From the NCBI GenBank assembly GCA_921293015.1, contig OV121091.1:7717755-7781754 (forward strand): a stretch of DNA of 64,000 nucleotides, in the 5' to 3' direction. The notes beneath the pieces were generated by a model. It made no database searches and was not told the origin of the DNA. It saw only the letters and a list, made by a program, of their open reading frames with translations. The position numbers and the translations under genes are program-made. Below are positions 9,901 to 57,200 of the stretch, piece after piece (the stretch's first letter is position 1; each line of letters begins with the position of its first letter). This DNA is from Phorcus lineatus (taxonomy: Eukaryota; Mollusca; Gastropoda; Trochida; Trochidae).

Positions 9901-9957
9901 AGCCATATCAGCCGCTGTTCATTCAGATTACACAACATCGGTACAGCGACCTGAAGA

Positions 9958-16854: not shown

Positions 16855-19800
16855 GTATCATCCCAACTTGGGATCGCGTCCCATCTTAAGATGGGACGCG
16901 TCCCAACTTGGAATTCCAAGTTGGGACGTCCGATCTTGAGATGGGACGGCAGATACTTTAACATGTTTATAATATCCTTATTCTAATGTTGAATTTAGAA
17001 TAACATGATAACATGTATCATTTAGATAAGTGCTTCAAGGACATCGAAAGATATTTTGATTTTATGTTGATTTTCATGACTTATTGGCTATATATATCTC
17101 TCATCGCATACGAGTCTTTCATCATGGCCCAATACGATTTCAAAAGTAATTCTTACACAAAGTCTTATAAATTATTTCATTATATTCTTAAATATTTTTA
17201 ATCATGAAAGCATGTTAAGCAAATAAAAAAAGAATTTATATTCAATTATACACTCAAAACCTACTGTAAGTGAATACCAAGAATGCTAATCTAATGCCTT
17301 GTAATCAGTTCAATTTCTGACACATAAACCGTTCCGTTAAGCAAGATTCCAATGTACTTATATATTGTGTTTGATAGTCGAATCTAAAAGTGTATGTATG
17401 TATGTAACATAATTCACAAACACTAACCTTTAAGTGATGTTCCGTCAATGCTTCTAAGATGTCCAGTAAATAAATCCAGTTATGTCTCCTCATATTTCCG
17501 ATCGAACCTGATCTGATCAGTGTCGTGATGCAAATGGCAAACATATCTGCTTGGTAGTTCAGAGATGGATGTGGGTTGGGTGGAGGGGGGGATGTCCGAA
17601 AGAAGGGATTTTGGTAAACATCCGGTTCGGTTATGACACTAATACCTGTGTGTCACCTTCCAATTAGTGACAAGAATGGGTACCAATTGCACATGAGCAT
17701 GCTTGTAACACTACAAAGGTACACGCCGAGCGTTTGTTGTTTTAGTCAATGATCATCATTCATTTTTATCAAGGCATTTGCCCCTATCGGCAATATCTCT
17801 GATAGGTGGAAGCAGACGTGATCAAACCCTAACCAAAAACAACAACAAATATTATGTTTAGTGTTATTGTATTGTTATTCGATGAAAGTTGTTTTGCCAC
17901 ACTAAATATATTCAAAACATTTTTTTCAATAACAGAACGATTATCATGTCAAGTAACCAAAATGAAATCTAACATCATCCATTGATTAATCATGGGGAAA
18001 TAGCACGCTTTTCAATAGATTTTTTAAAACAAGATAACTTAGTTTCCAAGATTTGCAAAAGAAGATTATGGTTTAAACAAATTTTTTTCATTTCTATAAA
18101 AAGAAATTAGATTTGGAGGCAAGCTGGAAGCTTATATTTATATTAATGCCGCTCCAATAAAAATTATATTTTGAAACCATCCAACATACAACACAAAGTG
18201 AAACAAATACGATGTACAGTTGCAGCACAATACGTTAAGATATTCAATATTGCAAAGGCGATTTCTTTATGCTAATTTAGAAATGCAATATTTCAACTCA
18301 TTTCTTATCAATACTACAAGAAGATTATAAACGGAATTTGTTCACTGAAAAACTTTGTTTACCTTCACTAGATTTTTTGACACAAACCCTTGTTCAGAAA
18401 AATTATTCTGTTTTCTACATAGCCCGAGGTAACATATGATTTTGATCAGTATTAAAAGGTTGCTTTTTTATATGTACAAGCGTCTATCTAGGCTTGTTAG
18501 AAGCGTTGAATTGAGAGAATTGTTGTGTGTTCATACTACTAATACGTTAATCAACTGATCCGTACATAAGTCAAATAAGATGAGTAGGTGAGGGGAAAGA
18601 ATTACATTTCAGTGTAATATTGTTATTTTACAGCTGAAAGTTTACTTAACTAATCGTTTTGTTATCTTTAAATAAGCTACTTAACATGTCCCCCCGAAAA
18701 AAGGCATTAGGTTTGTAAATACACATCAATGAAGTTTATTGATGTACTAAGACTTATCGAGTTATTTTGTGCTGACATACATGTACTAGTGTAATATCCT
18801 CAGAGGACTAAGTGATTCATATTGTTATTGCTTACACAAATCTGATATAGAAACTGTCATTTCTTATACAAAATTGATATTGAAACTGTCATTGCTTATT
18901 GTAAAATATTCGATATTTCATTGTATGAAAATATGCAATATGTGTAATCATATAATGGTTAGTAAGTATATTTCTATGATTTAAACGGTATTCTATTTCA
19001 ATAAAACATGTGTTACACAAAATTCAGAATTTATATACAAAAAGAAAAAAGGATTAGCAAACAGGCAGCAAATGCTTATATAAATTCTTTTCCTGAACCA
19101 AACATAAAACTATTTAGATATCAAGTACATTGGTGGAAATATACATTTGCAATTATTCTTACTAAACTCAAATTCATATGATGCTTTGTCTACCTTACAT
19201 TTTTTGTACAAATTTTAGGAAAGAGCTTAAAAAAATCGATTGGTATCGTTTATGAAATGATAAATATATATTATTAGGAATTCGTTAACACTCTGTGACA
19301 AAGATTTGTCGCCGTTAAGATAGATTTTAGTATATTGTTATGAGTTACGAGGGAATATTCAAACCCTAAGGTTGGCACTATTTGAAAATATCTAAAATGT
19401 TGGGGAACCAGACTTCGATAATAGGAACTTTTAATTATTTTTATATTTGATACAATCAACCAAGTCGCCAAGTAGATGAACAAGATAGTACTCTGTTAAA
19501 ACAACATGGGGTTTTGGTGTCTCCATATGTTGTTTTAGCCTAACAGTTCCTACGGTGGGGAAATTGGTGTCCAATCATCCGTTCTCTGTCACGCCAAGCT
19601 GACACATTAACAAATTCAGTCTAGTCAGTGCTGCATTGTAACGATGGAGAGTACCTTAATTTCTGTTTATACATATATAGGAGGTTTTTGCATGGATTAT
19701 TCATTTCTCTGTATCAGGTACGTTTTTTAATTATATATTTTTGAAAAAGCAATTTATCACTAGTATTGTAAAACTTGGATCTGTATTAGAATAACTTCAT

Positions 19801-20296
19801 ATCTGTGATTGTTAATAGTTTATACCACCTTTTTGTTAAGAAACTAAGATACAAAGGTGTCTCTGTGATGTCAGCTGTTCGATCTACGCATGTATTGTTC
19901 GTTTGAAAAATGCTGAAAACTACTATCTAAATATAAATCTATACATTGATCTGATTTTGTTATGTCTCTTAACAAATGTGATTCAATCAGTAATCAAATG
20001 TGACTTTAAATAAATGTTTGAGGTGTGTTGAATCGTTCGTACTCGATAACATATGAAACCGAGTGAAAAAGTGAAGTAAATGAACATCAAATCAAATTTT
20101 CTTCTTAGGTGTGAAAAGAATATAACAAAACTATCTAAAAACATGTTTTACTAACACAAATTATTATAAAATATGAATATTATTAACATGTTTAAGTATC
20201 CCCCGTCCCATCTCAAGATGGGACGTCCCAACTTGGAATCCCAAGTTGGGACGCGTCCCATCTTAAGATGGGGCGGATCCGCAGTTGGGATGATAC
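16855..20296. mobile_element. TIR element family 1, copy 2, inverted relative to copy 1
   Basis: It runs from GTATCATCCC at 16855 to GGGATGATAC at 20296 (3.44 kb), with the same palindrome-stacked ends as copy 1. The interior aligns with the reverse complement of 4159-8388, apart from the 957-bp insertion that copy 1 alone carries. The immediate flanks read GGGTATATAT and ATATATACCC, which are also inverted, so the terminal repeat may extend a few bases further. No transposase is coded. Confidence 0.87.
19644..19717 (+). other. Short ATG exon-like segment with GTACGT donor in TIR element 1, copy 2
   Basis: ATGGAGAGTACC at 19644 is followed 74 bases later by CAG|GTACGT. It is the counterpart of 4771-4837 in copy 1. 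The 7-base length difference makes the end of the frame differ. Transcription would leave the element through its right end, about 580 bases downstream. Confidence 0.3.
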
Positions 20297-21460
20297 ATAT
20301 ATACCCTCTCAAAGGGGCCTAATACATTTTATCACAGAAACTATTAATCTAGTATTGAGTAATACACACCTGGCCCTGGCAGTAATGGGCCGATATGCAT
20401 CATTCAAATGTCCCGTTACTCAATATCCTGACCTAATCACCATCAGTTAAGCATGTTACATCTGCACTAACTGAAGGTGCATTACAATAAACCAGATTTT
20501 GTATATAAACATTTTCTATATGAGCGGGCTATATGGCTCTTTTAACATTCGATAAAAAAAATATGCTTATTATTCTGAAAATATATCATGTTAATAGAAT
20601 CCCCCGAGTCTGAAAACAAGTTCATCCCGAAATGATTAAGTTTTCAGAATGGTAGGGATGAATACAATGACGGTGTTTCACTTAGACGTGATTTGGTTCG
20701 TTTGGATGGTTGAACTTGGAGGAGATAGCCATGGTGCTCTATCATTAGAAATGCGCAAAACGGTTGTCTCATCATAGTATTAATGTATTTGCTTGCAATA
20801 AAGGCAAATTAAAAGAGGGAGAGTGGAATACATTTGTCTTAAGTTGTGTCAGTGATTTTATGAACGGGCATGTCTACATATAACAGAGGTCTTAGACACC
20901 GATAATTTGAATGTTATTGATCTGAAATGGAGTTTCAATATCGTATTGGGTAATGCAATTACTAAAGGTTATTACTGAAATAGAGATTCATTGGTAAATT
21001 CCAGAAGAATTGATCAAGCCTGGCGATATTGTTTTCGCCAGGACGTGATCAAAAAGTAAACTAAACCTAGAAAAAAGGCATTGTAGGAAGATGCCAGTAG
21101 TTAAGGCATGATCCGTTGAATATTCAATGACTTGAATACTTTTCCAAAATTTAAATGAAATAGTGGTCGGAATTTCATACTTAAATTAAGGTCATCCTGA
21201 ATTTACTTTAGCCTTAGTAGATTGAAGTACGACCATCGTTGCAGATACAGTAGGTAAACGTAGGAATGTATAGAGAAATGCTACGGTAGAACATGTTCTT
21301 ATAGCTAGTCCGACGAAATAGGCCATGAAGACGCTGGTATTGCCGACCCGTCAAAATGGGATCATATAACTCCCTGTTTCTTTGCTCTGTCAACCATACG
21401 GGAAAGACTGAGATGGTCATTTTGGTCATAAGCTAGAAGAGAGGGACCAAATCAATCACT
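20297..21460. other. No feature recognised
   Basis: Between the two TIR families there is no convincing frame. A short inverted pair, TGGCGATA...TTCGCCAG, occurs near 21025. Homology to TIR element 2 begins only at about 21465. Confidence 0.3.
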
Positions 21461-22437: not shown

Positions 22438-22629
22438 GTCTGCAGTAGAGAACTGTTCTACACTACCACCCATGGTTCGCTAGTTCCAGCCGATGCTCGC
22501 AGGTTTCACCGCAATGCATAGCCACAATAGTGTTGCGGGCTTTCTCCCTGCAATAATACTAGCAGCCGCGATATAAGTGAAATAATCTTGAATGCGGCGT
22601 TAAACACCATCTCACCTCACCTCACCTCA
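22438..22629 (-). repeat. SINE copy 1
   Basis: On the minus strand it reads GGTGAGGTGAG, a conserved GTTTAACGCCGC...TCGCGGCTGCTAGTATTATT core, then ATGCATTGCGGTGAAACCTG and an unshared end. GGTTCGCTAGTTCC on the plus strand resembles a degenerate box B. A GTGAG-repeat end joined to a TTAACGCCGC core is familiar from gastropod SINEs; I infer the relation without a database. Confidence 0.65.
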
Positions 22630-23282
22630 TTTAAGTTTATAGTCAATTTGCGTTATTATTGTGCTACAACTCTATAGCGCACAGCGGCCTTTCAAAGAAT
22701 TTATTCTTAAAATGCTAATCGAGCTCGATAAAATTTACCATGATTTGAAGCACCGACTTGATGCACTACGCTCGGCAAGACTTTATCTCCTGTCATCGTA
22801 CAATTGTTTTATCATTTGTGCTTTAAAAAACTCGAATACCCGTTGAACCGAAACATTAATTAAATTTAACATAAATTAACCGATAAAATTTGAACATACA
22901 TTGTATCTCGATGTCTTCACACTCGAAATGTAGTAGTCTGCGACCTCGTTGTATCGCGGTAGTAAATGTTTCTCTCAACAAACGTTACTTCTTGCAGTCA
23001 AAACCAGGTATTTTTTATGTGTACCATACAAATATCATGTCATCAATAACAAATCAAAGAAGTAAAATAATTGTTATATTTTCTTCCATTTTCACTGATT
23101 TCACTGGGTTATTTTCAATTTTGAAAATATTACTGTATGTAAAAATTGATATAAAAAGAATTCTCTCTACATGAAATATTTCCCGTTTGGCTTGTACGTG
23201 TTTTTATGAACAGTTGGATAATCAGAAATGAGACTTAATTTGTGCACATGATAAAGATAGAAAATTGTTAAGTTCTTGATAT

Positions 23283-23407
23283 AGTGTCACCGCAATGCAT
23301 AGCCACTATAGTGTTGCGGGCTTTCTCCCTGCAATAATACTAGCAGCCGCGATATAAGTGAAATAATCTTGAAAGCAGCGTTAAACACCAACTCACCTCA
23401 CCTCACC
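23283..23407 (-). repeat. SINE copy 2, truncated
   Basis: It shares the core of copy 1 (ACCGCAATGCATAGCCACTA through CTCACCTCACCTCACCTC) but lacks the part distal to ATGCATTGCGGTG. Confidence 0.7.
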
Positions 23408-23576
23408 TCATTCATGACATTGTTAGAGTCAATCTTAACATTAACATATCATATAATGTTTCCATAATTAGACAGTGAATGGATCAGCGAACAAGCTGTT
23501 ACCTTAGCACAATACTATATATACATATCTTTTCAAAAATACATATCAAACAATCATAAACATGCATGAATGTAGT

Positions 23577-25062
23577 CGTACAATAATAATAATAATAAAT
23601 ATAGTCGCAAGCGACGACAAAAGGATTCAGCACATAAAAAGCACATTCAGTACAAACATAGTGATGTTAGCCAGCTTCCCTGAAAATTTCATGAAGATTG
23701 GTGCATGCATTAAGCTACAGCAGCAAGTTTCATCTGACCTTATCTGCTAGGCATACTGCGGTTTTTGCAAAGAAGTGCTCAGAAAAAAATATGAACAAAA
23801 TTGCAAATGTTCCGAGATAACTTTTCTCCCCACTCCTTCAGCTATGATATATGTGAGTTTTAGCTCTTAGATGCAGGTATCTTCAGAGAAGAAGATTCTC
23901 AAAGATGCATTTCAAAAATTCAATAAAAACAATATGCCGGCGAAACTATTGATGCTGGGAATTTGCCATGATTTACTTTTTTGCTCCAAATGTAATTACC
24001 TATCGTTTAAATTAAGTTGCAAGTCTCTAAGTGCATTTTGAAAAAAATTCCCATGTTATTTTTTCGAACTTTGAGTGGTACTGAGCCTTTAACGCTTAAT
24101 CTGATTAAGCCCAAAAGCTTCATGGATCTTCTCCTCATGAAGCTCTATCAGACTGCAAAGTTTGGCTGCAATCGCTTTAGCCGTTTGGGCTGAATCGTGT
24201 TCACAAGAATCGTGGAATAATGACAAGCGATTTCTGGAACCAAAAAAATGATAATGCGAAAAAAATATAATTATTATGAATTCGTCATGATTGACTTTTT
24301 TGTTTGTTCTGTTATGACGGTTCATTCAAAACAAGTTTCAAGTCCTTAGGTGCATTTTGAAAAAATACCCCATGTTAATTTTTTTAAAACATATTTTTGC
24401 TTTTTTTGATCGTTTATTGTGAATGAAAATGACTGTTCGCGACCAATGTTTTTAATGATTTGTAAAGTGTACATAGTGATCTGACCTTTCTGAAAAAATG
24501 GTGCAGTTGTGAGTCTAACTTTTTGAGTTATCGCCCTTTGAACATGGTCACAGGAGCAAAGTCGCCCGTTTTTGAAGGGTTGCAGAAAAAAAAGTATTAA
24601 CAAATATGCAAATGTTCCAAGATAAGATTTCTCCCCACTCCTTCAGCTATGATATATGTGAGTTTCATCTCTTAATTACATGTATCTTCAGAGAAGAAGA
24701 TTTTCAAAGATGCACAGGGTCCGGAAGTTTCAACTAGTCAAGAAAAAGCAATATGGCGGCGAAACTATGCATGCTAGGAATTTGCAATGATTTACTTTTT
24801 TGCTCCAAATGTAATTACCTATCGTTTAAAACAAGTTGCAAGTCTCTAGGTGCATTTTGAAAACATTTCCAATGTTAATTTTTCGGACTTTGGATGGTAC
24901 TGTGCCTTTAACGCTTAATTCGATTAAGCCCAAAAGCTTCATGGATCTTCTCCTCATGAAGCTCTGCCAGACTGGCAAGTTTGGCTGTAATAGCTTTAGC
25001 CGTTTTGGCTAAATCCCCGCCACAAAATCGGTGGAAGAAAAATAATAATAATAATAATAATA
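23577..25062 (+). repeat. Long module 1 of the TAA block, with 5' tract and hairpin
   Basis: It starts with (AAT)n, then a GTCGCAAGCGAC hairpin near 23605. Two partial cycles of the common long unit follow, each with TCCCCACTCCTTCAGCTATG and GATTTACTTTTTTGCTCCAA. It closes with (AAT)n at about 25040-25062. Confidence 0.65.
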
Positions 25063-26489
25063 ACTAGGACTGCCAAGGCAGTACTTAGGTCTTCAAGATT
25101 TCCTGCTTGAACTTCATACAGTGTTAGAGCTTAAAATGCTTCTTTGTGTTAGTGGTAAAGGGAGAGTGAAATTGGGACCAAATGTCATAAGCAAACTCTG
25201 ATTTTTGCAAAGAAGTTGATAGTGCGGAAAAACTATGCTAGTCATGAATTTGTCATGATTTACTTTTTTGTTTGTACTGTTATGACGCTTCATTCAAAAC
25301 AATTGTTTTCCTTCAACTGTTTGCAATTTAACCCTTGGGGTCAGGAATTTGCAAAAAGTCAAATGAAGCTAGATGGCGGCCAAACTATGCATGCTTCAAA
25401 TTCGCCGTGATTTGCTTTTTTGCTCGTGATGTAATTGCCTATAGTTTAAATCAAGTTGCAAGTCTCTAAGTGCATTTTGAAAAAAATTCCCATGTTAATT
25501 TTTCGAACTTTAGATCGTACTGTGCCTTTAACACTTAAGCCGAATAAGCCCAAAAGCTTATTGTGGCTTTGTCTCATGCAGTTCTATCAGACTGACAAGT
25601 TTGGCTGTAACAGCTTGAGCGGTTTTGGCTGAATCGTGTTCACAAGAATTGTGGAATGTTGAAAACCATTTTCTGGAACAAATAAGTTGATATTGTGCAA
25701 AAACTATCATACTTATGAAATCGTCATGATTGACTTTTTTGTTTATACTGTTAGTACGCTTCTTTCAAAACAAGTTTCAGGTCTCTAAGTGCATTTTGTA
25801 AAAATAGTCCATGTTAATTATTTTTCAACATATTTGTGCGATATTTGATCGTTTTTTGTGAACGGAAATGACTGTTCGCAATCGATGTTTTTATTGATTT
25901 GTAAAGTGTACAAAGTGATCTTACACTCCAGTGAATATGGTGCAATTGTGAGTCCAACTTTTTGAGTAATTGCCCCTTGAACATTGTCACACGAGCTAAG
26001 TCGCCCGACTTTGAAGGGTTGCAGAAAAAAAAGTATTAACAAATATGCAAATGTTGCTCTATTACTTTTTTCGCCACTCCTTCAGGTATGACATATGTGA
26101 GTTTCAGCTCTTAGATGCATGTATCTTCAGAGGAGAAGATTGTCAAAGATGCTTAGGTTGCGAAAATGCAAAAAAGTCAAATAGAGCAATATGGCGGCGC
26201 AAGTATGCAAGCTACGAATTCGCCATGATTTACTTTTTTGCTTCAAATGTAATTGCGCATCTTTTAAAAAAAGTTGCAAGTCTCTAACTTTATTTTGAAA
26301 AAATTTTCAATGTTAATTTTTGAAAGTTTGAGTGGTACTGTGCCTTTAACGCATGATCCGATCAAGCTGAAAAGCTTCGCCTGTCTATTCCTCAGTAAGG
26401 GCAATCAGCTCGCCAAATTTGGCTGAATTTGCATCAGTAGTTTTGGCTGAATCCTATTCACAAAAAAAGTACAAATAATAATAATAATA
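25063..26489 (+). repeat. Long module 2 of the TAA block
   Basis: It opens with ACTAGGACTGCCAAGGCAGT, whose GACTGCCAAGGCAGT is a small hairpin, then CTTAGGTCTTCAAGA. It closes with CACAAAAAAAGTACAAATAA and (TAA)n. The same opening recurs at 26490, 29551, 31033 and 31659. Confidence 0.7.
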
Positions 26490-27440
26490 ACTAGGACTGC
26501 CAAGGCAGTACTTAGGTCTTCAAGACTTCCTGCTTGAACTTCACACAGTGTTTGACCTGCGCATGCTTTTTTGTTTTAGTGGTGAACGGTTAGTTAAAAT
26601 TGAACCCAATCTCATAAGCAAAGTGTGATTATTGCAAAGAAGTTGAAAATGCGGAAAAACTATGCTAGTGAGGAATTTGTCAGGATTGACTTTTTTGTAT
26701 GTACAGTTATGACGCTTCATTCAAAACAAGTTTCAAGTGTCTAGGTGCATTTTGAAAAATTACCCCATGTTAAAGTTTGGTCAAAAGATTTCTGCCGATT
26801 TCGATCGTTAATTGTGAAAAACTTGACCTTGTTCGCGAATCAGGTTTGAACAGTTTCGTCAAGAGCACATACAGGTCTTGCATTCCTGAAACAATGGTGC
26901 AATTGTGAGTCTAACTTTTTGAGTTATCGCCCCTTGAACATGGTCACACGAGCTATGTTGCTCGAGTTTGAAGGGTTGCTGAGCAAAAAGTTTTAATGTT
27001 ATGACCTTGAAAAAGTCAAATTCAAAATTACAATGCTTCAGGTACATTGAGTGTGAATTTCAGCTCTTAGATGCAAGTATCTTCAGAGAAGAAGATTGTC
27101 AAAGATGCACGGGGTCCGAAAATGCCAAAAAGTCAAATAAAGCAAAATGGCGGCGCAAGTATGCATGCTACGAATTCACCATGATTTACTTTTTTGCTGC
27201 AAATGTAATTGCCCATCTTTTAAAACAAGTTGCAAGTCTGTAAGTGCATTTTGAAAAAATTTTCAATGTTAATTTTTGAAAATTTGAGTGGTACTGTGCC
27301 TTTAACGCATGATCCGATCAAGCTCAAAAGCTTCGCACGACTATTCCTCAGTAAGGGCTATCAGCTTGTAAAATTTGGTCGAATTTGAAGCAGCCGTTTT
27401 GGCTGAATCCGATTCACAAAAAAAGTACAAATAATAATAA
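26490..27440 (+). repeat. Long module 3 of the TAA block
   Basis: It has the same opening and closing sequences as module 2 but is about 480 bp shorter. The middle joins parts of the common unit that are separate in other copies, which suggests deletion or recombination between homologous units. Confidence 0.65.
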
Positions 27441-27756
27441 TAAGAACTTGAAGAAATCGGATCATAACAATAGGTCTTCCAGACTTTGTCTTGAAGACCT
27501 AATAAGAACTTGAAGAAATCGGATAAAAACAATAGGTCTTCCAGACTTTGTCTTGAAGACCTAATAATAATAATAATAATAAGAACTTGAAGAAATCGGA
27601 TAAAAACAATAGGTCTTCCAGACTTTGTCTTGAAGACCTAATAATAAACAGGATAAAAACAATAGGTCTTCCAGACTTTGTCTTGAAGACCTAATAATAA
27701 TAATAAAAAACACGCCAATAACAATAAGGATTCAGCATTTCTGCTGAATCCTTAAA
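27441..27756 (+). repeat. Tandem run of hairpin units with TAA spacers
   Basis: Four copies of a 29-base hairpin unit (AGGTCTTCCAGACTTTGTCT plus TGAAGACCT) lie at 27472-27500, 27534-27562, 27611-27639 and 27664-27692. Each is preceded by GGATAAAAACAAT or GGATCATAACAAT and followed by AATAA repeats. A different hairpin (AAGGATTCAGCA...TGCTGAATCCTT) follows at 27726-27753. Confidence 0.85.
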
Positions 27757-29335
27757 TATAGTCGCAAGCGACGACAATGACAGGATTCGGCAAAATATGA
27801 GCAGGCGTGGCTCTTGGGGGCAAACTAAGTGCTTTTCCAAGTTTAGATAGCGTTTTGAAGAGATTTTCAGTGCACTGCAGTTGATTTAGCCGTATTCTGA
27901 AGCAAAATGACGTTTTGTATACGTTTTCAGTACGTAGCGAGACATAGGAGCGGAAGTGAGGTTTACTCGATGTACACGGCCTGCTGCCAGTTGAGGCAAG
28001 AAAGTAGCAACATCATAATGTAAGGGGTATCTGGAGGGGAGGCAGTAGAGGTTTGAAAGTTGAAAAAGGGTTAGTGTTTTCCTTCGGCGCGCGTGATCAG
28101 GTGCTTTGCCGACACTGGAATATAGTTCCCGAATGCTGGTACATAGGTTGAGGATCTTGATATATATAAATAATCAAGACTATGTCAGTCAGTCCGCTCA
28201 GATCAGTCAGGCAGGCTTTTTTGCTCGCCTCTCTGCCTGTCTGATCAGATTTTGACAGTGCTTGACGCACTTGTGTGCATTTGGTCATCTCGCGCACGCT
28301 GTCCATACGTCCAGTCGTACGGACTTCTGCTGCATAAAGCCATTTCGGCCTTCTCTAGACTGTCAATTACGTGATAATTCATAAGACATCGAAGAGTATT
28401 TCTTCAAACTTCTGCCCCATGTCGCATGTCTTGACAGGAAGGGTGTTTTCCTTCAACTTTTCAAATTAACCCTTGCTAACGCACTCAGCGAATCTTGCTA
28501 CAAGAGCAATGTAGAGTATTTCTGTCAACTTTTGCCCTTTCACACATGCAAGAGCGCATGTACCTGCATTTGAACATGTCACACGTCTTGACCGTTCTTC
28601 AATATTGATGTTTTCCTTCAATTGTTTGCAATTTAACCCTTGCTAACGCACTTAATTGACATATAGTATGATGCAAACTTTGACTCTCTCTTTTGAACTA
28701 AAATGACTGTTCGCGACCGATGTTATGCTTGATTCTTAAAGACCTTGGTCGTGTCTATCTCTCATGCAAATTTCATGAAATTCGACGGGTAGGTTTTTCA
28801 GTTATCTGCCCTTGAAGTTGGCGATTTTTGAAAATTCACTGACTTTGAGTGGTTACTGTGGTAAAAGTATTAGGAATTTGCGAATTCCAAGACAAACTTG
28901 TTTTAGACCAATCATTTAGCTGTGTAACTGTGTAAGTATCATCTCTCTACTGCAAGTAGCAGCAGTGTAGTGTCCGCTCAAAGGTGCATGGGGTCGGACA
29001 TTCCTAAAAAGTGCGTAAATTCAAGATGGCGCCCAAACCACGTGACTTACGAATTTGCCATGATTTACTTTTTTGCTGCAAATGTAATTGCGCATCTTTT
29101 AACGCAAGTTGCAAGTCTCTAAGTGCATTTTGAAAAATTTTTCAATGTTAATTTTTGAAACTTTGAGTGGTACTGTGCCTTTAACGCATGATCCGATCAA
29201 GCTGAAAAGCTTCGCATGTCTATTCCTCAGTAAGAACAATCAGCTTGCCAAATTTGGCTGAATTTGCATCAGTAGTTTTGGCTGAATCCCATTCACAAAA
29301 AAAGTACAAATAATAATAATAATAATAATAATAAA
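27757..29335 (+). repeat. Long module of the GTCGCAAGCGAC type, copy 1
   Basis: It opens with ATATAGTCGCAAGCGACGAC, then AATGACAGGATTC, and runs about 1.5 kb. Landmarks are TGCCTGTCTGATCAGATTTT near 28235 and repeated TAACCCTTGCTAACGCACTT words. It shares its last ~350 bp with the other long modules and closes in (AAT)n near 29310-29335. A second copy starts at 32624. Confidence 0.7.
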
Positions 29336-29550
29336 CAGGATAAAAACAATAGGTCTTCCAGACTTTGTCTTGAAGACCTAATAATAATAATAAACAGGAT
29401 AAAAACAATAGGTCTTCCAGACTTTGTCTTGAAGACCTAATAATAAAACACGCCAATAACAATAAGGATTCAGCAAAATTGCTGAATCCTTAATAATAAA
29501 ACACACCAATAACAATAAGGATTCAGCAAAATTGCTGAATCCTTAATAAT
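29336..29550 (+). repeat. Second run of hairpin units
   Basis: Two AGGTCTTCC-type hairpins (29351-29379 and 29410-29438) and two GGATTCAGCAAAATTGCTGAATCC hairpins (near 29463-29491 and 29516-29543) are separated by (TAA)n. Each of the latter is preceded by an ACACGCCAATAACAAT-like leader. Confidence 0.85.
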
Positions 29551-30990
29551 AACTAGGACTGCCAAGGCAGTACTTAGGTCTTCAAGACTTCCTGTTTGAC
29601 CTTCACACACTGTTTGACCTTGACATGCTTTTTTGTCTTAGTGGTAAACAGTAACTTATGTATGTGGCCAAATTTCAGTAGCAAACTGTAAATATTGCAA
29701 AGAAGTTGATAATGCGCAAAAACTATGCTAGAAAAAATATTTGACTTTCATCAAAATAAAGATCACCCTGAAATGCCCAATGCCTCAGCTACAATATTAT
29801 GGAGTTTCAGCTCTGAGATGCAAGTAACTTCAGAGAAGAAGATTCTGAAAGATGAATTTCAAAAAGTCAATAAAAGCAATATAGCGGCAAAACTATTCAT
29901 GCTACGAATTCAAGATGATTTACTTTTTTGCTCCAAATGTAATTGCCTATCGTTTCAAACAAGTTTCAAGTCTGTAAGCGCATTTTGAAAAAATAACCCA
30001 TGTTAATTTTTCGAAATTTGAATCCTACTATGCCTTTAACGCTTAATCCGATTAAGCCCCAAAGCTTATTGTGGCTTCTTCTCATAAAGCTTTATCAGAC
30101 CGGAAAGTTTGGCTGCAATCGCTTTAGCGGTTTTGGCTGAATCGTGTTCACAAGAATCGTCGAATAATGAAAACCTATTTCTGGAACAAATAAGTTGAAA
30201 ATGCGAAAAAACTATAATACTTATGAAATCGTCATTATTGACGTTTTTGTTGGTACTGTTATGACGCATCATTGAAAACAAGTTTCAAGTCTCTAGGGGC
30301 ATTTTACCCCATGTTAAATTTGTTAAAATGATTTTTCCCGATTTTGAGCCTTAATTGTGAAAAACTTGACCATTTTCGCGATCAATGTTTTGATAGTTTC
30401 GTCAAGAGCACATATAGGTCTTACATTCCTGAAAAAATGGTGCAATTGTGAGTCTAACTTTTTGAGTTATCGGCCCTTGAACATGGTCACAGGAGCTAAG
30501 TCGCCCGACTTTGAAGGGTTGCAGAAAAAAAAGTATTAACAAATTTGCAAATGTTGCTCTATTACTTTTCTCCCCACTCCTTCAGCTATGATATATGTGA
30601 GTTTCAGCTCTTAATTGCATGTATCTTCAGAGAAGAAGATTGTCAAAGATGTATGGGGTCCGGAAATTTAAAAAAGTCAAAAAAAGAAATATGGCGGCGA
30701 AAGTAGTAACGCTACGAAATTGCCATGATTTACTTTTTTGCTCCAAATGTAATTGCCTATCGTTTAAAACAAGTTGCAAGTCTCTAAGTGCATTTTGAAA
30801 AATTTTCCAATGTTAATTTTTGAAACTTTGAGTGGTACTGTGCCTTTAACACATGATCCGATTAAGCCCAAAAGCTTTGCACGACTATTCCTCAGTAAGG
30901 GCTATCAGCATACAAAATTTGGTTGAATTTGAAGCAGCCGTTTTGGCTCTATCCGATTCACAAAAAAAGTACAAATAATAATAACTCGGA
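29551..30990 (+). repeat. Long module 4 of the TAA block
   Basis: It opens with AACTAGGACTGCCAAGGCAG and closes with ACAAAAAAAGTACAAATAAT. The interior is the common unit, with TTTGAAGGGTTGCAG near 30510. Confidence 0.7.
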
Positions 30991-31000
30991 TAAAAACAAT

Positions 31001-31029
31001 AGGTCTTCCAGACTTTGTCTTGAAGACCT
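31001..31029 (+). repeat. Single AGGTCTTCC-type hairpin unit
   Basis: It matches the units at 27472 and elsewhere and sits between the tail of module 4 and the head of module 5. Confidence 0.8.
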
Positions 31030-31032
31030 AAT

Positions 31033-31658
31033 AACTAGGACTGCCAAGGCAGTACTTAGGTCTTCAAGACTTCCTGTTTGAACTTCACACAGTGTTTGAC
31101 CTTCACATGCTTTTTTGTCCTAGTGGTAAACACTAGTAACTTATGTATGTGACCAAATGTCAGTAGCAAAGTGTGATTATTGCAAAGAAGTTGATAATGC
31201 GAAAAAACTATGCAATTTAGGAATTCGTCATCATTTACTTTTTTGTTTGTACTGTGATAAGGCTTCATTCAAAACAAGTTTCAAGTCTCTAGGTGCATTT
31301 TGAAAAATTACCCCATGTTAAATTTTGTCAAAGATTTTTCCAGATTTGAGCCTTAATTGCGAAAGGAAATGACTGTTCGCGATCGATGTTTAAACAGTTG
31401 CGACAAGCCCACATATAAAGGTCTTACATCACTAAAAATGGTGCAATTGTGAGTGTAACTTTTTGAAAAAAATTTCAATGTTAATTTTTGAAACTTTGAG
31501 TGGTACTGTGCCTTTAACGCATCATCCAATCAAGCTCAAAAGCTTCGCCTGTCTATTCCTCAGTAAGGGCTATCTGCATACAAAGTTTGGTCGAATTTGC
31601 AGCAGCCGTTTTGGCTGTATCCGTGTCATAAAAAAAGTACTAATAATAATAATAATAA
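31033..31658 (+). repeat. Long module 5 of the TAA block, internally deleted
   Basis: It opens with AACTAGGACTGCCAAGGCAG. After AATGGTGCAATTGTGAG it passes directly into the closing third, so it is only about 625 bp long. Confidence 0.65.
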
Positions 31659-32623
31659 CTAGGACTGCCGAGGCAGTACTTAGGTCTTCAAGACTTCCTC
31701 TTTGACCTTCACATAGTGTTTGACCTTCACACGGTGTTTGACCTTCACATGCTTTTCTGTCTTAGTGGTAAACAGTAACTTGCCTATGTGACCAAATCTC
31801 ATAAGGAAACTGATATTATTGCAAAGAAGTTGATAATGCGAAAAAAGTATGCTAGTTACGAATTGGTCATGATTGACATTTTTGTTTGGACTGTGATGAC
31901 GCTTCATTCAAAACAAGTTTCAAGTCTGTAAGTGCATTTTGAAAAATTACCCCATGTTAAATTTTGTCAAAAGATTTTTCCCGATTTCGATCGTTAATTG
32001 TGAAAAAAAAAACATGTTCGCAATCAATGTTTTGATAGTTTCATCAAGTCAACATATAGGTCTTACATTCCTGAAAAAATGGTGCAATTGTAAGTCTAAC
32101 TTTTTGAGTTATCGGCCCTTGAACATGGTCACACGAGCTAAGTCGCCCGACTTTGAAGGGTTGCAGAAAAAAAAGTATTAAGAAAAATGCAAATGTTGCT
32201 CTATTACTTTTCTCCCCACTCCTTCAGCTATGATATATGTGAGTTTCAGCTCTTAATTGCATGTATCTTCAGAGAAGAAGATTGTCAAAGATGTATGGGG
32301 TCCGGAAATTCAAAAAAGTCAAAAAAAGAAATATGGCGGCGAAAGTAGTAATGCTACGAAATTGCCATGATTTACTTTTTTGCTCCAAATGTAATTGCCT
32401 ATCGTTTAAAACAAGTTTCAAGTCTCTAAGTGCATTTTGAAAATTTTTCCAATGTTAATTTTTGAAACTTTGAGTTGGTCTGTGCCTTTAACGCATGATC
32501 CGATTAGGCCCAAAAGCTTCGCACGACTATTCTTCAGTAAGGGCTATCAGCATACAAAATTTGGTTGAATTTGAAGCAGCCGTTTTGGCTGTATCCGATT
32601 CACAAAAAAAGTACAAATAATAA
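31659..32623 (+). repeat. Long module 6 of the TAA block
   Basis: It opens with CTAGGACTGCCGAGGCAGTA and closes with ACAAAAAAAGTACAAATAAT. The segment 31990-32600 is very close to 30360-30970 in module 4, so these two are recent relatives. Confidence 0.7.
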
Positions 32624-34030
32624 ATATAGTCGCAAGCGACGACAATGACAGGATTCAGCAAAATATGAGAACCCGTGGCTCTTGGGGGCAAACTAAGTGC
32701 TTTTCCAAGTTAAGATAGCGTTTTGAAGACATTTTTAGTACACTGCAGTTGATTTAGCCGTATTGTGAAGCAAAATGACGTTTTGTATACGTTTTCAGTA
32801 CGTAGCGAGACATAGGAGCGGAAGTGAGGTTTACTCGATGTACACGGCCTGCTGCCAGGTGAGGCAAGAAAGCAACAACATCAAAATGTAAGGGGTATGT
32901 GGAGGGGAGGCAGTAGAGGTGTGACAGTTGAAAAAGGGCTAGTGTTTTCCTTTGGCGAGATCAAGTGCTTTGCCGACACTGGAATACAGTTCCCGAATGC
33001 TGGTACATAGGTTGAGGGTCTTATTATATATAAATAATCAAGACTATGTCAGTCAGTCGGCTCAGGTCAGTCAGGTAGGCTTTTTTGCTCGGTTCTCTGC
33101 CTGTCTGATCAGATTTTGACAGTGCTTGACGCACTTGTGTGCATTTGCTCATCTCGCACACGTCGACCATACGTGCAGTCGTACGGACTTCTGCTTCAAA
33201 GAGCGAATTGGTCCCTCTGTAGACTGTCAATTACGTGCTTGTTCATAAGACATCAAAGAGTATTTCCCTCAAACTTTGCCCCATGTCCGTATACCTTGAC
33301 AGGAAGGGTCTTTTCCTTCAACTTTTCAAATTACCCCTTGCTAACGCATTTAGAGAATCTTGATACAAGAGCAACGTAGAGTATTTCTGTCAACTTTTGC
33401 CCTTTCACACATACAAGAGCGCATGTACCTGCATTTGGACATGTCACACGTCTTGACCGTTCTTCAATATTGATGTTTTCCTTCAATTTTATGCAATCTA
33501 ACCCTTGCTAACGCACTTGACAAATCTTGCTACAGGAGCAATGTAAGACTTCTGCACACGTTCCCATTTTCTTTTAAACAGGTGAGGGGGCATTTGGGGG
33601 GTGGGGAGGGGGGGGGGGGGGTCATTTCTGCATTTTATCACGCTAGAGTGTGTTTTCCTTCAATTGTTTGCAATTTAACCCTTGCTAACGCACTTAATTG
33701 ACATATACTATGATGCAAACGTTGACTCTCTCTTGTGAACTGAAATGACTGTTCGCGATCGAATTTATTCTTTATTCTTAAAGACCTTAATCATTTCTAC
33801 CTCTCATGCAAAAATCACGTAATTCGACAATTAGGTATTTGAGTTTTCTGCCCTTGAATATGCTAAAACGAGCAAAGTCGCTTGACTTTGAAGGGTTGCC
33901 TTTAACGCTTAATCCGATTAAGCCCAAAAGCTTATTTGAACCCCTTCTCATGAAGTTCTACCAGACTGCGAAGTTTGGCTGTTGTAGCTTTAGCGGTTTG
34001 GGCTAAATCGGGTCCACAAAATCGGTGGAA
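32624..34030 (+). repeat. Long module of the GTCGCAAGCGAC type, copy 2
   Basis: It aligns with 27757 onward, including the TGCCTGTCTGATCAGATTTT landmark near 33100, but has a shorter end. A purine-rich run of G (about 33592-33621) could form a quadruplex. Confidence 0.7.
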
Positions 34031-34235
34031 AAAAAAAAAAATAAAAAAAAATAATAAAACACGCCAATAACAATAAGGATTCAGCAAAATTGCTGAATCC
34101 TTAATAACTCGGATAAAAACAATAGGTCTTCCAGACTTTGTCTTGAAGACCTAATAAGAAGAAGAATAAGAATAAGAAGAAGAAGAAATCGGAGAAAAAC
34201 AATAGGTCTTCCAGACTTTGTCTTGAAGACCTAAT
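34031..34235 (+). repeat. Closing run of hairpin units
   Basis: An A-rich stretch is followed by one GGATTCAGCA hairpin (near 34074-34102) and two AGGTCTTCC hairpins (34124-34152 and 34204-34232). Homology to TIR element 2 resumes right after the last TAATAA. Confidence 0.8.
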
Positions 34236-35474
34236 AAATAGTTCTTGTATAGCGCAAAAATCTCCATATTTACTTGTTTTTTATATAATAGTTTAACAAT
34301 GGATATCGTCATCTTCACAGTGCTCTTATTACATAAATATTCTACATTCTGTTTTAAAAAAATACCGATTGGAACATCGTTGCATGCAAAATATTTTTTA
34401 CCCTATCCTATTGATATTTGAACCTTTGAAGCTTGGAATTTTTAGGACCTTAGACCAAATTAAAAAATGAAATGGCACCAAATTGTAGAACTTTTTTCGG
34501 GTTTAATATTTATAAATGAAATAGGTTTAGTCAAATTATGCACTGCAGGCTGAGATTAGAATGTGGCGACTTAATTGCACATTATGAGACATTGATAACA
34601 TTTCAATGCGTACTGTCCTGAGCTGGCCCCTATGTTGTCATAATCAATAGGTGCCCATTATGCAATCTCATTCATGTCAAGTTAAAATTTAACTGTCTCT
34701 CATTACACTTATTTAATTTTCACATTTGTGCATTTGACCCCTTGGTGGCTGTCGGCTTATATCAACGTCCTAGTACAATGACATAACTCATGGCATTACA
34801 CAGCTAATTATAATCAGTATATATCTTTTAGGATATACATTCAACCAATGAGAGGAAGAGAAACTTCTGTTATGCTATCCATGTTTATCAAATGTAGATC
34901 ATTGGAAAGGTTAACAAATCCAATAGAATTATTCAGGAAGTCGATTTCATGTTGCAAATTATTCATAGATTACTTTTTCTGACGCTTGGAATTGGTATGT
35001 ACTTTATCATTTATAATCTTTCAAATTTCACTTTCCATAAAGGCACGGAAAAGGTCCTTTTTCCCTTTTGAAATCAAATGAACTTATATGTTTCAATCTT
35101 TTAAAACCAAAGGTTTGTTATTATTAGTATTATTACTAGCAAATGAAATTCAATGCAAACATTTTTGTCTTAATATTTTTTTTTTCATAATGAAAATGTA
35201 TACATTTCTCTATCTCTCTTTTTTTTCCAAATGATGCAATATTCAAATTCATAATCATTGTTTCATTTCGTTTCAAACAAAAGTGTTTCATTCAATCAAT
35301 AAATGGTAAAATAAATAATAAAAGATAGCAATGAAAATAATAATATGCAGGATTTGATTTATTATCTTAAAATCAAAGTCTATATTTATTCAAAAATTGT
35401 AATGCAAAACTTCGATCAATAAATTTTTCAATCAAAATATTTTTTTTCAAAATGTTAATTGTCAACTGACATAG

Positions 35475-35681
35475 TGAGTGAGTGAGTAGGTGTTCAACAC
35501 CGCTTTAAAGATTATTTCACTTATATCGCGGCTGCTAGTATTATTGCAGGGAGAAAGCCTGCAACACCATTGTGACTATGCATTGCGGTGAAACCTGCGA
35601 GCATCGACTGGAACTAGCGAACCATGGATGGTACTGTGCTGAAACTCAGTGTAGCATTGCACCCAAACCTGACTGGTAAAA
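35475..35681 (+). repeat. SINE copy 3, with 8-bp target duplication
   Basis: It opens TGAGTGAGTGAGTAGG, continues with CAACACCGC and the TATCGCGGCTGCTAGTATTA core, and ends after GCGAACCATGGATGG...GTAAAA. TGACATAG flanks it at 35467-35474 and 35682-35689. It is the same family as 22438-22629, in the opposite orientation. Confidence 0.75.
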
Positions 35682-35816: not shown

Positions 35817-36150
35817 TCAATAGTGCTTTATCAATAGTGCTTTATCAATAGTGCTTTATCAATAGTGTTTTATCAATAGTGCTTTATCAATAGTGTTTTA
35901 TCAATAGTGTTTTATCAATAGTGCTTTATCAAGTGCTTTATCAATAGTGTTTTATCAATAGTGCTTTATCAATAGTGCTTTATCAATAGTGTTTTATCAA
36001 TAGTGTTTTATCAATAGTGCTTTATCAATAGTGTTTTACAATAGTGTTTTATCAATAGTGTTTTATCAATAGTGCTTTATCAATAGTGTTTTATCAATAG
36101 TGTTTTATCAATAGTGCTTTATCAATAGTGTTTTATCAATAGTGTTTTTA
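35817..36150. repeat. 14-bp minisatellite, ~23 copies
   Basis: The unit is TCAATAGTG(C/T)TTTA. A C/T variant alternates irregularly, and a few units have lost one or more bases. Confidence 0.95.
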
Positions 36151-41200: not shown

Positions 41201-41213
41201 AAAAAGAATGCAA

Positions 41214-41560
41214 TAATGACTTATGTTAAAAAGTTTGCAGTCATCAAGCATTTGGAAAGGAATGTCTGCAAAGGAAATCTATGAAGACATGGTCGATACT
41301 TTTAGTGCTGTCTCCGTGACCAAATGTGGCTATGAAATTCTTCCATATTCACCCTACTTCCCTGATTTGAGACCCTCAGGCTTTTTCCTCTTTCAAATTC
41401 TGAAGAACAATTTACATGGATGTGATTTTGCTCACAACAGCCTGATTGCTGCCCTGGAGAGATTTCTTGAGACTAAAGATGCGGACTTCTAAAAGAATGG
41501 CATAACGAGGATGGAACATGGCTGGTCGTAATGTATTTATTTAGTTCATGATCATCCATC
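41214..41560 (+). pseudogene. Internally deleted mariner transposase remnant in the left arm
   Basis: The plus strand reads MSAKEIYEDMVDTFS, as in mariner N-termini, and joins directly to TKCGYEILPYSPYFPDL (third catalytic Asp region) and a C-terminal ALERFLETKDADF. The middle, with the first two Asp residues, is gone. Mariner enzymes are DD34D cut-and-paste transposases. Confidence 0.65.
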
Positions 41561-49617: not shown

Positions 49618-49744
49618 TTTTATTTTTTATTACTTTTCAGTCTTCTGTCGGTAGTATCAGGGAACAGAGAGTAGGGGCACAGCTCATCCCAGAGGGAATG
49701 TTTACGCCAGTAATTTGGTTTTTAGCTTAACAAGTTTCATTTCA

Positions 49745-54227: not shown

Positions 54228-57200
54228 CTCACCCTGGAGTAACGAGCGTTCATTCCAAAAGCTTAAAGGCGTCCTTTCCAAGAGGAAAGAGGCACCCTTC
54301 CACACCTTTCCATAAAGGAAAGAGGCACCCTTCCACACCTTTCCAAAGGCTTAAAGAACGCCCTTTCCAAAGCCTCTTTGGAAAGAACGCACGGCAAGGT
54401 GACCTTTCCACAGCCTTTAAAACTAATTAGCACCTTACCTGTCTGACCAAGAGTTATGTCCCTTTATTCTGTTTGTCAAATTCGTCATGTTATTGAATAC
54501 CTTTAGAAGTTTTTGATTAAGTTAAACTAAAGTTATTTTTACATTTTGAAAATCTTTATTTTGTTTGAAAGATTGATTCTTAAAAGACATAAAATTTAAT
54601 TTACCTTTGAAAAATTAAAACGTTTTTCATCGCAACTTTTTAACAAAAGAAGACTTTGTTTTTAAATTGATGAATCAAATCCTGCATATTATTTTATTGC
54701 AGAAATTAAATAAATCATTTTACTATTCAAGGATTGACTTAAACACATGAAATGAATAAGAGATATAGAGTTTGAAAATTGCAACATTTAAAATTAAAAG
54801 ATATTTAGAAAATTGTATGAATTTAATCATGGAAAATGTTAATAAAAAATTTTTGGCGATGATTATCATTTGTTCGCAATAATTTGTTTGATTTCAAAGG
54901 TAAATGGTGACCTTTTTGAAAGTGAAGTTTGAAAGATTATCAATGACAAAGTACATACCCGTTTCAATCGTCAGAAAAAGTGATCCATGAATTGTTTGCA
55001 ACTTGATCGACTTCCTGAATAATCCTATTAAATTTGGGTACCTTTCCAAATGATCTACTTTTTTCAAGTGACTGTAAGCATCGATAGCATTGCAGAAGAT
55101 TTTCTTCTCATTGGTTGAACGTATATTCTACAAGTTCATTGGTTTATAATGTTTGTCGTTGTTAAGATGTACTAATTAGCTGTGTAATGCCAAGAGTTAT
55201 GTCAGTATGAACGGATGTTGACATAAGCCGCCATTTACCAAAGGGTCCAAAGCACAGGTGTGGGCCTGCTATTTTAGACAAATAATCTAACAATGAAATT
55301 TGACAGGAAATAGATTACGTAATAGGCACCTGTTAATTATGACAACATTAGGACCCAGCTATGGACAGTATGCATTGAATCTGAGCAGTGTCTTGTGATG
55401 TGCAATTGCGTCGCCACATTCTAAACTCAGCATGAAGTACATAATTGACAAAACCAGTTTCATAAATAAATATCAAAACTAAAAAAGTGTTTTTATTTGG
55501 TTTTTTTTTAAATTCCAAGCTTCATAGATTCAAAATTTATTTGGATTAGGTAAAAACTATTATGCATACAAGAATGTATGAATGAGTTTTTAAAAAGAAT
55601 ATAGAATGTTGATGTAATAAGAGCAGTGTGAAGATGACAATATCCCTTGTCAATCGTTAAGTTTTATATAAAACAACTAAATACAGGATCATATAACGAA
55701 TATTTTTACTTAAATGTATGACTACATTAATCATGCATGTTTATGATTGTTCGATATGTATTTCGAAAAGATATATATGCCTCAAGAAAGTAAATTCTAA
55801 GGCAACAGCTAGTTCGCCGATCCGTTCGCTGTCCAAATTAAGGAAACATTTAGATATGTGTATGTAAATTGCAACTTACAATGTCATGTGTAATTATGGT
55901 AAAACTTATGATATCAACAACAAAGCGTTGATCTAATATTAATTCATTGTTCATGAGCTTAACATAATAAAGAACATTTTAGAAATAGAATTTAGAAACA
56001 TACAATCTAATGCTATTGTTTGATAATAACAAGCAAAACAGAAAAATCTTATAAAACAGATCCACAAAAATATTTTATTGAATCTTACATACCCCCTATT
56101 TCAAATTATGCACCTTAGGCTTTCTGTGAGAAGAATCGCTCATTATAAACAATATACATCTTGTTAATTTGTCTAGCCGACAATCAAGTTTGCCTCTTTG
56201 ATCTCATAGTGGTAATTAACTGGATGCGTTTAGTGTAGAGGCTGGACCAGAAAGGGGGAGGGGGCGTGAGGGGTGGGGCGTCTGGAAGTGACACTCGCTT
56301 GAAAAGAGCGTCTGACAAGATTGCTTTCATTGCTATTTGGCGGTCTATGGTATAGTATTCCCGCTATGCCATTACCGGGACCTGGACTAACGGATCATGA
56401 ATTGAGTTTCACTTGAATGTCATATCTAAAATATAGATTTAGCCAATGATCGAGTTTACAATTTATGATGAAAATATTAGGCTTTTCATTATTACATTAT
56501 CAGGGCTTATTTCGGAGGTCACGTTTTAATATATCAAACCCAGTAACCACATACTTGAACCAAACCTCAAATGTCCACAAAAGATTTTATAGAAAGCTCA
56601 ATCGGCTCATACATAGCTTAAAATATAGTTTTATGAACAATTCATTTCTGTTGATAGGTTTGCTCATACATGAAACGGTATAAGATTGTTTTCTGACAAT
56701 TCCTATGTTGTATCAATTCTTTTGAAATTTAAGGAAATAATTTAAATTTCTGTGTCAAGGTTAGAAACACCGTGTAAAGTAAAATTATCAATAATATCAA
56801 GTCTATTTTTGTAAAAGAACACAGAAACGGATGTATGAAAACATATTAATGGATATTAATAATCAATTGACGATACTTTATACATACTGATACTACAATA
56901 TGTGCACATATCCATTAAAAGTGGTAAATATTGTAAATAAAAACTTCACCTTGCGTATTAACCTCTGTCTAATAAGGAAAATTTTGACTTGCTTCCATTG
57001 TGTGCTAACAGTGAAATAAATGGATGGTTAAGACAATCAACAACGGGTTTCATATCATGTTATAAGATGTCTTACATTTCTTTTATTAACTCTCCATGCT
57101 CCAGATCTTGCTTCATATGTCTTTTGTGAATGTTCTCTTTGCCGTTCAACAAACGGTTTCATACCATGTGATAATGTCGCATACATTTCACTTTCAAGCT

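What the first reader, a model, noticed from the sequence alone, without database searches (positions are those of the whole stretch)
23577..34235. A 10.7-kb pile of elements that seem to have inserted into each other's (TAA)n tails
Seen: at least eight long modules and about 13 minimal hairpin units abut at (AAT)n/(TAA)n tracts, nearly all on one strand. The inverted copy of the surrounding TIR element lacks the whole block. Inference: a TAA-tailed retroelement family prefers (TAA)n targets, so every insertion makes a new target and the pile grows in one direction. The long modules also look like recombination mosaics of a common unit.
Basis: partly seen in the sequence, partly recalled or inferred. 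Interest (0 to 1): 0.75.

Follow-up and report, generated by a model that had tools for sequence, protein, structure and literature searches.

The report
Self-nested rolling-circle transposons in TAA tracts
A 10.7-kb stretch of animal-like DNA is a pile of non-coding mobile elements, most likely of the Helentron kind, that seem to have jumped repeatedly into a short TTA repeat that each of them carries near one end.

Summary
Between 23582 and about 34237 there are 21 element ends on one strand: 8 long modules and 13 hairpin units, every joint at TAA in one phase. An inverted copy of the flank at 55.5-55.9 kb lacks the block and has no TAA array. The retroelement reading is not supported. Read on the minus strand, long modules and hairpin units are two halves of non-coding elements built like HINEs (non-autonomous Helentrons): 5' palindromic subTIR plus IR, linker, (TTA)n microsatellite, body, 3' subTIR, small palindrome. 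There are two end types, with subTIRs of 15 bp (A) and 12 bp (B) exact; 0 of 2000 shuffles reach either. The 21 ends parse as correctly nested brackets, inserts always in the host element's TTA tract; the order alone is weak evidence, since about 6% of shuffles parse too. Bodies are mosaics. Surplus 5' ends fit recombination or transposition with several 5' ends, both described for Helitrons. The new point is that the element's own TTA microsatellite acts as the landing pad: a new variant of a known kind. No genome-wide test was possible.

The parts
23582..34237 (-). Whole pile of HINE-like elements (element 5'->3' runs on the minus strand)
   Evidence: empty site
29553..31034 (-). Un-nested complete type A element (A3): 5' LF 30985-31034, TTA tract 30974-30984, body, 3' RF 29553-29593
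   Evidence: 15-bp exact subTIR TTAGGTCTTCAAGAC
32624..34107 (-). Complete type B element (B3), nothing nested inside it: 5' LF about 34058-34107, body, 3' RF 32624-32660; it sits in the TTA tract of A5
   Evidence: 12-bp exact subTIR AGGATTCAGCAA
31659..34157 (-). Type A element A5, split by B3 in its TTA tract; its LF in the parse is the hairpin at 34119-34154
   Evidence: nested parse; its assigned linker is of the same CTCGG class as that of A3
31035..34237 (-). Type A element A4 (short body), split by A5 in its TTA tract; its LF in the parse is the hairpin at 34199-34234
23599..27755 (-). Type B element B1, split in its TTA tract by A1, itself split by A2; its LF in the parse is the odd B hairpin at 27716-27755
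25064..26490 (-). Body and RF of type A element A1 with its TTA tract (LF among the hairpins at 27529-27641)
26491..27505 (-). Type A element A2 with its directly adjacent LF hairpin 27467-27502
27756..29499 (-). Type B element B2: RF side is B (92% to B3 over 900 bp), microsatellite side is A-like (94% to A1 over 261 bp); two surplus A LFs (29346, 29405) between its body and the B LF at 29454
27467..27697 (-). Four A-type LF hairpins in a row (27467, 27529, 27606, 27659); two are surplus to the 3' ends
29507..29552 (-). Surplus B LF, one edit from the B LF at 29454 (possible local tandem duplication)
25041..25063 (.). TAA joint between B1 body and A1 RF, an example of the landing tract
55500..55900 (-). 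Inverted paralogue of the flank: empty site, no block and no TAA array

Best explanation
The block is a nested pile of non-autonomous rolling-circle transposons of the Helentron/Helitron2 kind (HINE-like), in two end families A and B, lying 5'->3' on the minus strand. Shown: each element type has a 5' left flank (palindromic subTIR plus IR, short linker), a TTA microsatellite, a body without recognisable coding sequence and with diverged internal repeats, and a 3' right flank (inverted subTIR, then a small palindrome). Shown: joints between elements lie in TTA tracts, in one phase. Inferred: a Rep/helicase supplied elsewhere inserts copies at T^T without target duplication, and the TT in the element's own (TTA)n is a favoured site. 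Inferred: because that tract lies just inside the 5' flank, self-insertion leaves both end signals of the host element intact, so composites can still move and each insertion renews the target. Inferred: surplus 5' flanks come from transposition that starts at an outer 5' end and stops at the first 3' end, from local duplication, or from deletion between homologous bodies, as proposed for B2.
For: SubTIR words: A 15 bp, B 12 bp exact, 0 of 2000 single-base shuffles each. 5' palindromes fold far better than shuffles, z -5.5 and -7.3. The order of parts matches Cg_HINE: subTIR, complementary IR and microsatellite in the left flank, 3' subTIR and palindrome in the right (PMC7492417, passages). 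The small 3' palindromes differ in sequence between A and B but sit in the same place. All 21 ends on one strand; 8 RF and 13 LF joints in one TAA phase. A nested parse closes all 8 elements with same-type ends. On the element strand 4 of 8 body-RFs follow an LF directly and 4 follow another element's RF, which a simple tandem array would not give. A3 and A5, the most similar A pair over the microsatellite-side 180 bp (96.6%), are assigned the only two CTCGG-class LFs, one across B3; the outlier B1 is assigned the outlier B hairpin across A1 and A2. Empty site without TAA array. B2 has A-type LFs and an A-like body end joined to a B 3' side. No Pfam family in 10 of the block's frames. Multiple 5' ends with one 3' end, and self-insertion composites, are described for Helitron2-type Fusarium elements (PMC5148889, passages and section 10).
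Against: The bracket order alone parses in 11,841 of 200,000 full shuffles and 13,165 of 200,000 label shuffles. A body-versus-LF distance test for A shows no correlation (r -0.06; 6326 of 15120 assignments do as well, and 76 of 210 with the adjacent pairs fixed); the LF matches cited in favour were picked after looking, and over the RF-side 170 bp the pair most alike is A3-A4 (94.6%), not A3-A5 (90.1%). The small 3' palindromes do not beat shuffles (z -0.9 and -1.2). The 3' subTIR lies 21 (A) and 26 (B) nt from the 3' end, closer than the 38-60 nt of mite HINEs. T^T without duplication cannot be told from a TTA duplication inside a TTA array, nor at the outer site. No transposase, second locus or genome was available. 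B2's switch from B-like to A-like spans a stretch (about 28830-28960) only weakly like either, so it is not a clean recent crossover.
Confidence: 0.72

Rival explanations
1. The ends are HINE-like, but the pile grew mainly by recombination between TAA tracts and homologous bodies, or as rolling-circle tandem products, not by repeated insertion.
For: Recombination between TAA tracts also keeps phase. Bodies are clear mosaics. Neighbouring LFs are near-identical tandem copies. The bracket order is only about a 6% event. Helitron arrays with many 5' ends and one 3' end are reported (Xiong et al. as summarised in a passage of PMC12628747).
Against: The reported tandem pattern has a single 3' end. 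Here LFs cluster and body-RF units repeat, with 8 RFs. The bodies are not one amplified unit: compared ends are 82-97% alike among A bodies and 72-95% among B bodies. Exchange between tracts alone would be expected to leave some 3' ends without a 5' partner; the parse leaves none.
Confidence: 0.2
2. One reading: a TAA-tailed retroelement family inserting into TAA tracts, with the minimal units as separate short elements.
For: Each long module ends in TAA and one-way growth is expected.
Against: All 8 long modules keep the other end. The subTIR words tie long-module and hairpin ends of one type together. No tRNA-like part, longest stop-to-stop frame in the block 113 aa, no Pfam family in 10 frames. 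The microsatellite-side 180 bp of A bodies are 86-97% alike while 9 of 9 A hairpin markers are exact.
Confidence: 0.05
3. PIF/Harbinger-like MITEs that duplicate TAA/TTA on insertion.
For: Elements are flanked by TAA on both sides, and the outer empty site contains TAA, so a TAA duplication cannot be excluded.
Against: No terminal inverted repeat: the inverted words sit at the 5' end on one side and 21-26 nt inside on the other. The two palindromes and the internal microsatellite are HINE features. Harbinger features are recalled, not from a call.
Confidence: 0.03

Closest known systems
HINE / DINE-1-like non-autonomous Helentrons (PMC4067079, passages and section 6; Cg_HINE of oyster, PMC7492417, passages)
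   Same: 5' subTIR with complementary IR, microsatellite in the left flank, repeat-bearing body, 3' subTIR then palindrome, T-rich target, no clear target duplication, non-coding
   Different: The microsatellite is TTA, which itself holds TT (oyster: mostly 4-nt motifs such as GTCY, though 3- to 8-nt motifs occur), and family members lie nested in it; the 3' subTIR is closer to the end than in mite HINEs
FoHeli (Helitron2-type) of Fusarium, with multiple 5' termini and self-insertion (PMC5148889, passages and section 10)
   Same: Inverted repeat about 20-40 bp from the 3' end, hairpins, several 5' termini per 3' terminus, nested copies; a triple in Metarhizium that the authors read as insertion into another's 5' end twice, or rolling-circle replication
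   Different: In the passages read: one nested example, one insertion 2 bp from another copy, the Metarhizium triple and short 5' duplications; here 8 elements in one pile joined through one microsatellite
Shuffled Helitron/Helentron loci of Crassostrea gigas, and transposon dimers formed by insertion-site preference in Drosophila (both in passages of PMC12628747)
   Same: Loci with truncated, tandemised and nested Helentron parts and mosaic central repeats; adjacency through target preference
   Different: The passages read do not mention a microsatellite inside the element as landing tract
Microsatellite-targeting transposons: MuTAnT (PMC4486113, passages), Micron (named there); Helitron-like elements in (GAAA)n (Coates 2010, title seen in reference lists only)
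   Same: Insertion into microsatellites
   Different: In the MuTAnT passages read, genomic TA microsatellites are the target, not a repeat carried inside the element

Membership tests
HINE (non-autonomous Helentron) | SubTIRs of at least 11 bp, inverted, one near each end | tested here: met
   A 15 bp, B 12 bp exact, on one element of each type; 0 of 2000 shuffles each
HINE (non-autonomous Helentron) | 5' subTIR within a few nt of the 5' end, with complementary IR close by | tested here: met
   0 (A) and 3 (B) nt if the end is taken at TTA; palindromes with 3- and 4-nt loops, z -5.5 and -7.3
HINE (non-autonomous Helentron) | Palindrome between 3' subTIR and 3' end | tested here: inconclusive
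   Present in both families at the same place with different sequence, but folding energy not beyond shuffles, z -0.9 and -1.2
HINE (non-autonomous Helentron) | 3' subTIR 38-60 nt from the 3' end (mite HINEs) | tested here: not met
   21 (A) and 26 (B) nt; within the 20-40 nt of the Fusarium Helitron2-type elements, so this counts against the mite layout, not against the clade
HINE (non-autonomous Helentron) | Microsatellite after the left flank | tested here: met
   TTA tract directly inside the linker in A3; a degenerate T-rich form in B3
HINE (non-autonomous Helentron) | Insertion at TT / T-rich site without target duplication | tested here: inconclusive
   Empty site is T-rich on the minus strand; a TTA duplication cannot be separated from none
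HINE (non-autonomous Helentron) | Autonomous partner with Rep/helicase/endonuclease and the same ends | not testable with these tools
   No genome held; longest frame in the block 113 aa; exact-match scans empty
PIF/Harbinger MITE | Terminal inverted repeats at both termini (recalled) | tested here: not met
   Longest inverted match starts 21 (A) or 26 (B) nt inside the 3' end
TAA-tailed retroelement (LINE/SINE) | Coding region or tRNA-like head, and 5'-truncated copies (recalled) | tested here: not met
   No tRNA in the window, longest frame in the block 113 aa, no Pfam family in 10 frames, 0 of 8 modules lacking that end
Canonical Helitron (Helitron1) | 5' TC, 3' CTRR, insertion between A and T | tested here: not met
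   5' ends TTAGG and TTAAGG; A ends CTAG, which fits CTRR, but B ends CTATAT; TTA context

The most novel reading that the evidence does not exclude
A Helentron family carries its own renewable target: the TTA microsatellite just inside the 5' flank is a preferred landing site for the same family. Self-insertion is therefore harmless to the end signals, composites stay mobile, and loci grow by nesting and then shed solo 5' flanks and mosaic bodies. The microsatellite found in HINEs generally could then have a role as an internal safe site.
Probability: 0.35. Interest if true: 0.62.

Novelty: new variant of a known kind. Interest (0 to 1): 0.45.

Why it matters
HINE-like elements of insects and molluscs are reported with a microsatellite beside the left flank (PMC4067079, PMC7492417, PMC4344730, passages read). 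In this pile that tract is where other family members sit. If this holds genome-wide, it offers a reason for the microsatellite and a route to mosaic bodies, multiple 5' ends and shuffled Helentron loci. The pile can be read layer by layer, which makes self-nesting against tandem rolling-circle amplification directly testable.

Tried and rejected
Retroelement with TAA tail: rejected, because long-module and hairpin ends share subTIR words and all 8 modules keep the other end. PIF/Harbinger MITE: rejected for lack of terminal inverted repeats. Simple tandem amplification: rejected for the pile as a whole, because LFs cluster and body-RFs repeat with 8 RFs; still possible for neighbouring LFs (TRF). 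Bracket test: weaker than hoped, about 6% of shuffles parse. Distance test of LF against body for A: no correlation. Ten literature searches turned up no paper that, in the listings and passages I saw, describes an element's own microsatellite as its family's landing site; the library lacks most subscription journals. Rfam (gathering scores) and ARAGORN on the window: nothing.
Full report
OBSERVATION. A marker scan with up to 30% edits finds, on the + strand between 23599 and 34237, 8 long-module starts (A at 25064, 26491, 29553, 31035, 31659; B at 23599, 27756, 32624) and 13 hairpin units (A at 27467, 27529, 27606, 27659, 29346, 29405, 30996, 34119, 34199; B at 27716, 29454, 29507, 34065). 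Their edit counts are 0 to 4; weaker hits in the block (8 to 12 edits) are palindrome echoes on the minus strand, or places where one end's word or linker resembles the other's. All 8 long-module starts are preceded by TAA, and all 13 hairpins are followed by TAA, in one phase, with 1 to 7 units. Tracts of 9 bp or more make up 201 of 10,657 bases of the block; in the rest of the window TAA and TTA tracts together make up 78 of 53,343 bases. The flanking sequence has an inverted, diverged copy at 54.6-56.8 kb (68-79% identity in four pieces). At 55500-55900 that copy runs across the site with no block and no TAA array, and shows an A/T-rich stretch where the block would be.

WHAT IT IS. Reading the minus strand as the element strand, two units with nothing nested inside show the anatomy. 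A3 (31031 down to 29553, 1479 bp) starts TTAGGTCTTCAAGAC, which with the following complement forms a palindrome (z -5.5). Then come a linker, a TTA tract and a body. It ends with the inverted word GTCTTGAAGACCTAA, a small palindrome ACTGCC-TT-GGCAGT, and CTAG. B3 (34104 down to 32624, 1481 bp) has the same plan with a different word, AGGATTCAGCAA (palindrome z -7.3), and a different small palindrome, GTCGC-TT-GCGAC. The inverted words are 15 and 12 bp exact, and 0 of 2000 single-base shuffles reach either. The small 3' palindromes do not beat shuffles on energy (z -0.9, -1.2); their support is that both families have one in the same place with different sequence. This order is the one reported for oyster HINEs: subTIR, complementary IR and microsatellite at the left, 3' subTIR and palindrome at the right, T-rich/TT target, no target duplication (PMC7492417, passages; PMC4067079, passages and section 6). 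The longest stop-to-stop frame in the block is 113 aa, and 10 of the 48 frames listed there, including the longest, match no Pfam family, so the elements would depend on an enzyme from elsewhere.

HOW THE PILE IS ORDERED. Written on the + strand, with capitals for long-module starts (element 3' ends) and small letters for hairpins (element 5' ends), the order is B A A a a a a b B a a b b A a A A B b a a. Every capital can be closed by a small letter of its own type under correct nesting, with five small letters left over. This alone is not strong: 11,841 of 200,000 full shuffles and 13,165 of 200,000 label shuffles also parse. Three things strengthen it. First, in the parse the four insertions into an element (A1 in B1, A2 in A1, A5 in A4, B3 in A5) all lie in the TTA tract between host 5' flank and host body, although such tracts are under 2% of the block. 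Second, the most similar A bodies over the microsatellite-side 180 bp (A3 and A5, 96.6%) are assigned the only two CTCGG-class linkers, one of them across the inserted B3; and the outlier B1 is assigned the outlier B hairpin across A1 and A2. These matches were noticed after the fact. Over the RF-side 170 bp A3 is most like A4 (94.6%), not A5 (90.1%), and a general distance test for A shows no correlation (r -0.06; 6326 of 15120 assignments as good, 76 of 210 with the adjacent pairs fixed). Third, on the element strand 4 of 8 bodies follow a 5' flank directly and 4 follow another element's 3' end. The tandem arrays described for plant Helitrons, with many 5' ends and one 3' end (Xiong et al. 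as summarised in a passage of PMC12628747), would not give this.

MOSAIC BODIES AND SURPLUS 5' ENDS. Bodies carry diverged internal repeats (for example B1 182-622 against 985-1441, 85%; A1 290-585 against 1108-1403, 75%). B2 is a clear mosaic: its 3' side matches B3 at 92% over 900 bp, while its last 261 bp by the microsatellite match A1 at 94%. In sliding windows the best partner changes from B3 to A bodies between about 28780 and 29016, with a stretch only weakly like either in between. B2 is also the element with A-type 5' flanks stacked inside its B flank. A simple reading joins the two facts: an A element sat in B2's tract, and a deletion between the two related bodies removed the A 3' end and left a hybrid body. 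This is inference. Other surplus flanks may be local duplications (five short-period TRF rows at 97-100% match within 27438-27700 and 29320-29552; two longer-period rows over the first stretch score 64% and 91%), or may have arrived with elements that already had several 5' ends, as described for Fusarium Helitrons (PMC5148889, passages and section 10).

MECHANISM. Most likely (0.72): HINE-like elements inserted one after another into the (TTA)n carried by earlier copies. The tract offers TT, the target dinucleotide reported for Helentrons. It lies just inside the 5' flank, so insertion there spares both end signals, and each insertion brings another tract. Shown here: the anatomy, one strand, one phase, empty site and mosaics. 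Inferred: rolling-circle mechanism, T^T preference, continued mobility of composites. A TTA target duplication cannot be excluded inside TTA arrays, nor at the outer site. The top level of the pile is itself a row of balanced blocks joined at TAA, so some elements landed beside, not inside, their neighbours; adjacency through insertion-site preference is described for Drosophila transposon dimers (passage of PMC12628747).

KNOWN AND NEW. Helentron anatomy, Helitron self-insertion, multiple 5' ends, microsatellite-targeting transposons (MuTAnT, PMC4486113, passages; Helitron-like elements in (GAAA)n, Coates 2010, title in reference lists only) and shuffled Helentron loci in oyster (PMC12628747, passages) are all in print. 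I found no description of an element's own microsatellite as the landing site of its family in the listings and passages from the searches; the library is open-access only. The host looks like a mollusc to me from the texture of its short repeats; that is recalled and rests on no call. No second locus was available: no genome is held, and exact scans of bacterial/archaeal and viral contigs were empty.

Noticed in passing
4144-8403 and 16844-20307: Large inverted repeat arms (long pieces 82-89% identity) about 8.4 kb apart, with a short self-complementary GC-rich stretch at 20203-20276, 16877-16948 and 4179-4252 and a similar one at 8316-8384; may be a large fold-back or TIR element.
   Followed up: no
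9955-10965 (+): Tc1/mariner-like transposase in two frames (PF01498 E 3.5e-13, PF13358 E 1.8e-9), with open frames on the other strand too.
   Followed up: partly
60741-62564 (+): Frames of which 61645-62211 matches DDE_Tnp_1_7 (PF13843, E 5.2e-42), a piggyBac-type domain by recall; the two neighbouring frames match nothing in Pfam.
   Followed up: partly
22503-22631, 23284-23412, 35474-35637 (-): Three copies of a short repeat (90-96% identity) on both sides of the block, SINE-like by recall; two end in CACCTCACCTCACCTCA, the third in CACTCACTCACT.
   Followed up: partly
58773-59729: 145-bp tandem repeat, 6.6 copies, 91% match.
   Followed up: no
35817-36148: 14-bp tandem repeat TCAATAGTGTTTTA, about 24 copies.
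   Followed up: no
41203-42000 and 48773-49628: Inverted repeat pair at about 95% identity, about 7 kb apart.
   Followed up: no
24202-24221, 25641-25656, 30147-30168: Inside bodies B1, A1 and A3 a sequence like the B-type body end (CACAAGAATCGTGGAATAAT and variants) recurs mid-body; it may be a decayed joint of an older generation of fused elements.
   Followed up: partly
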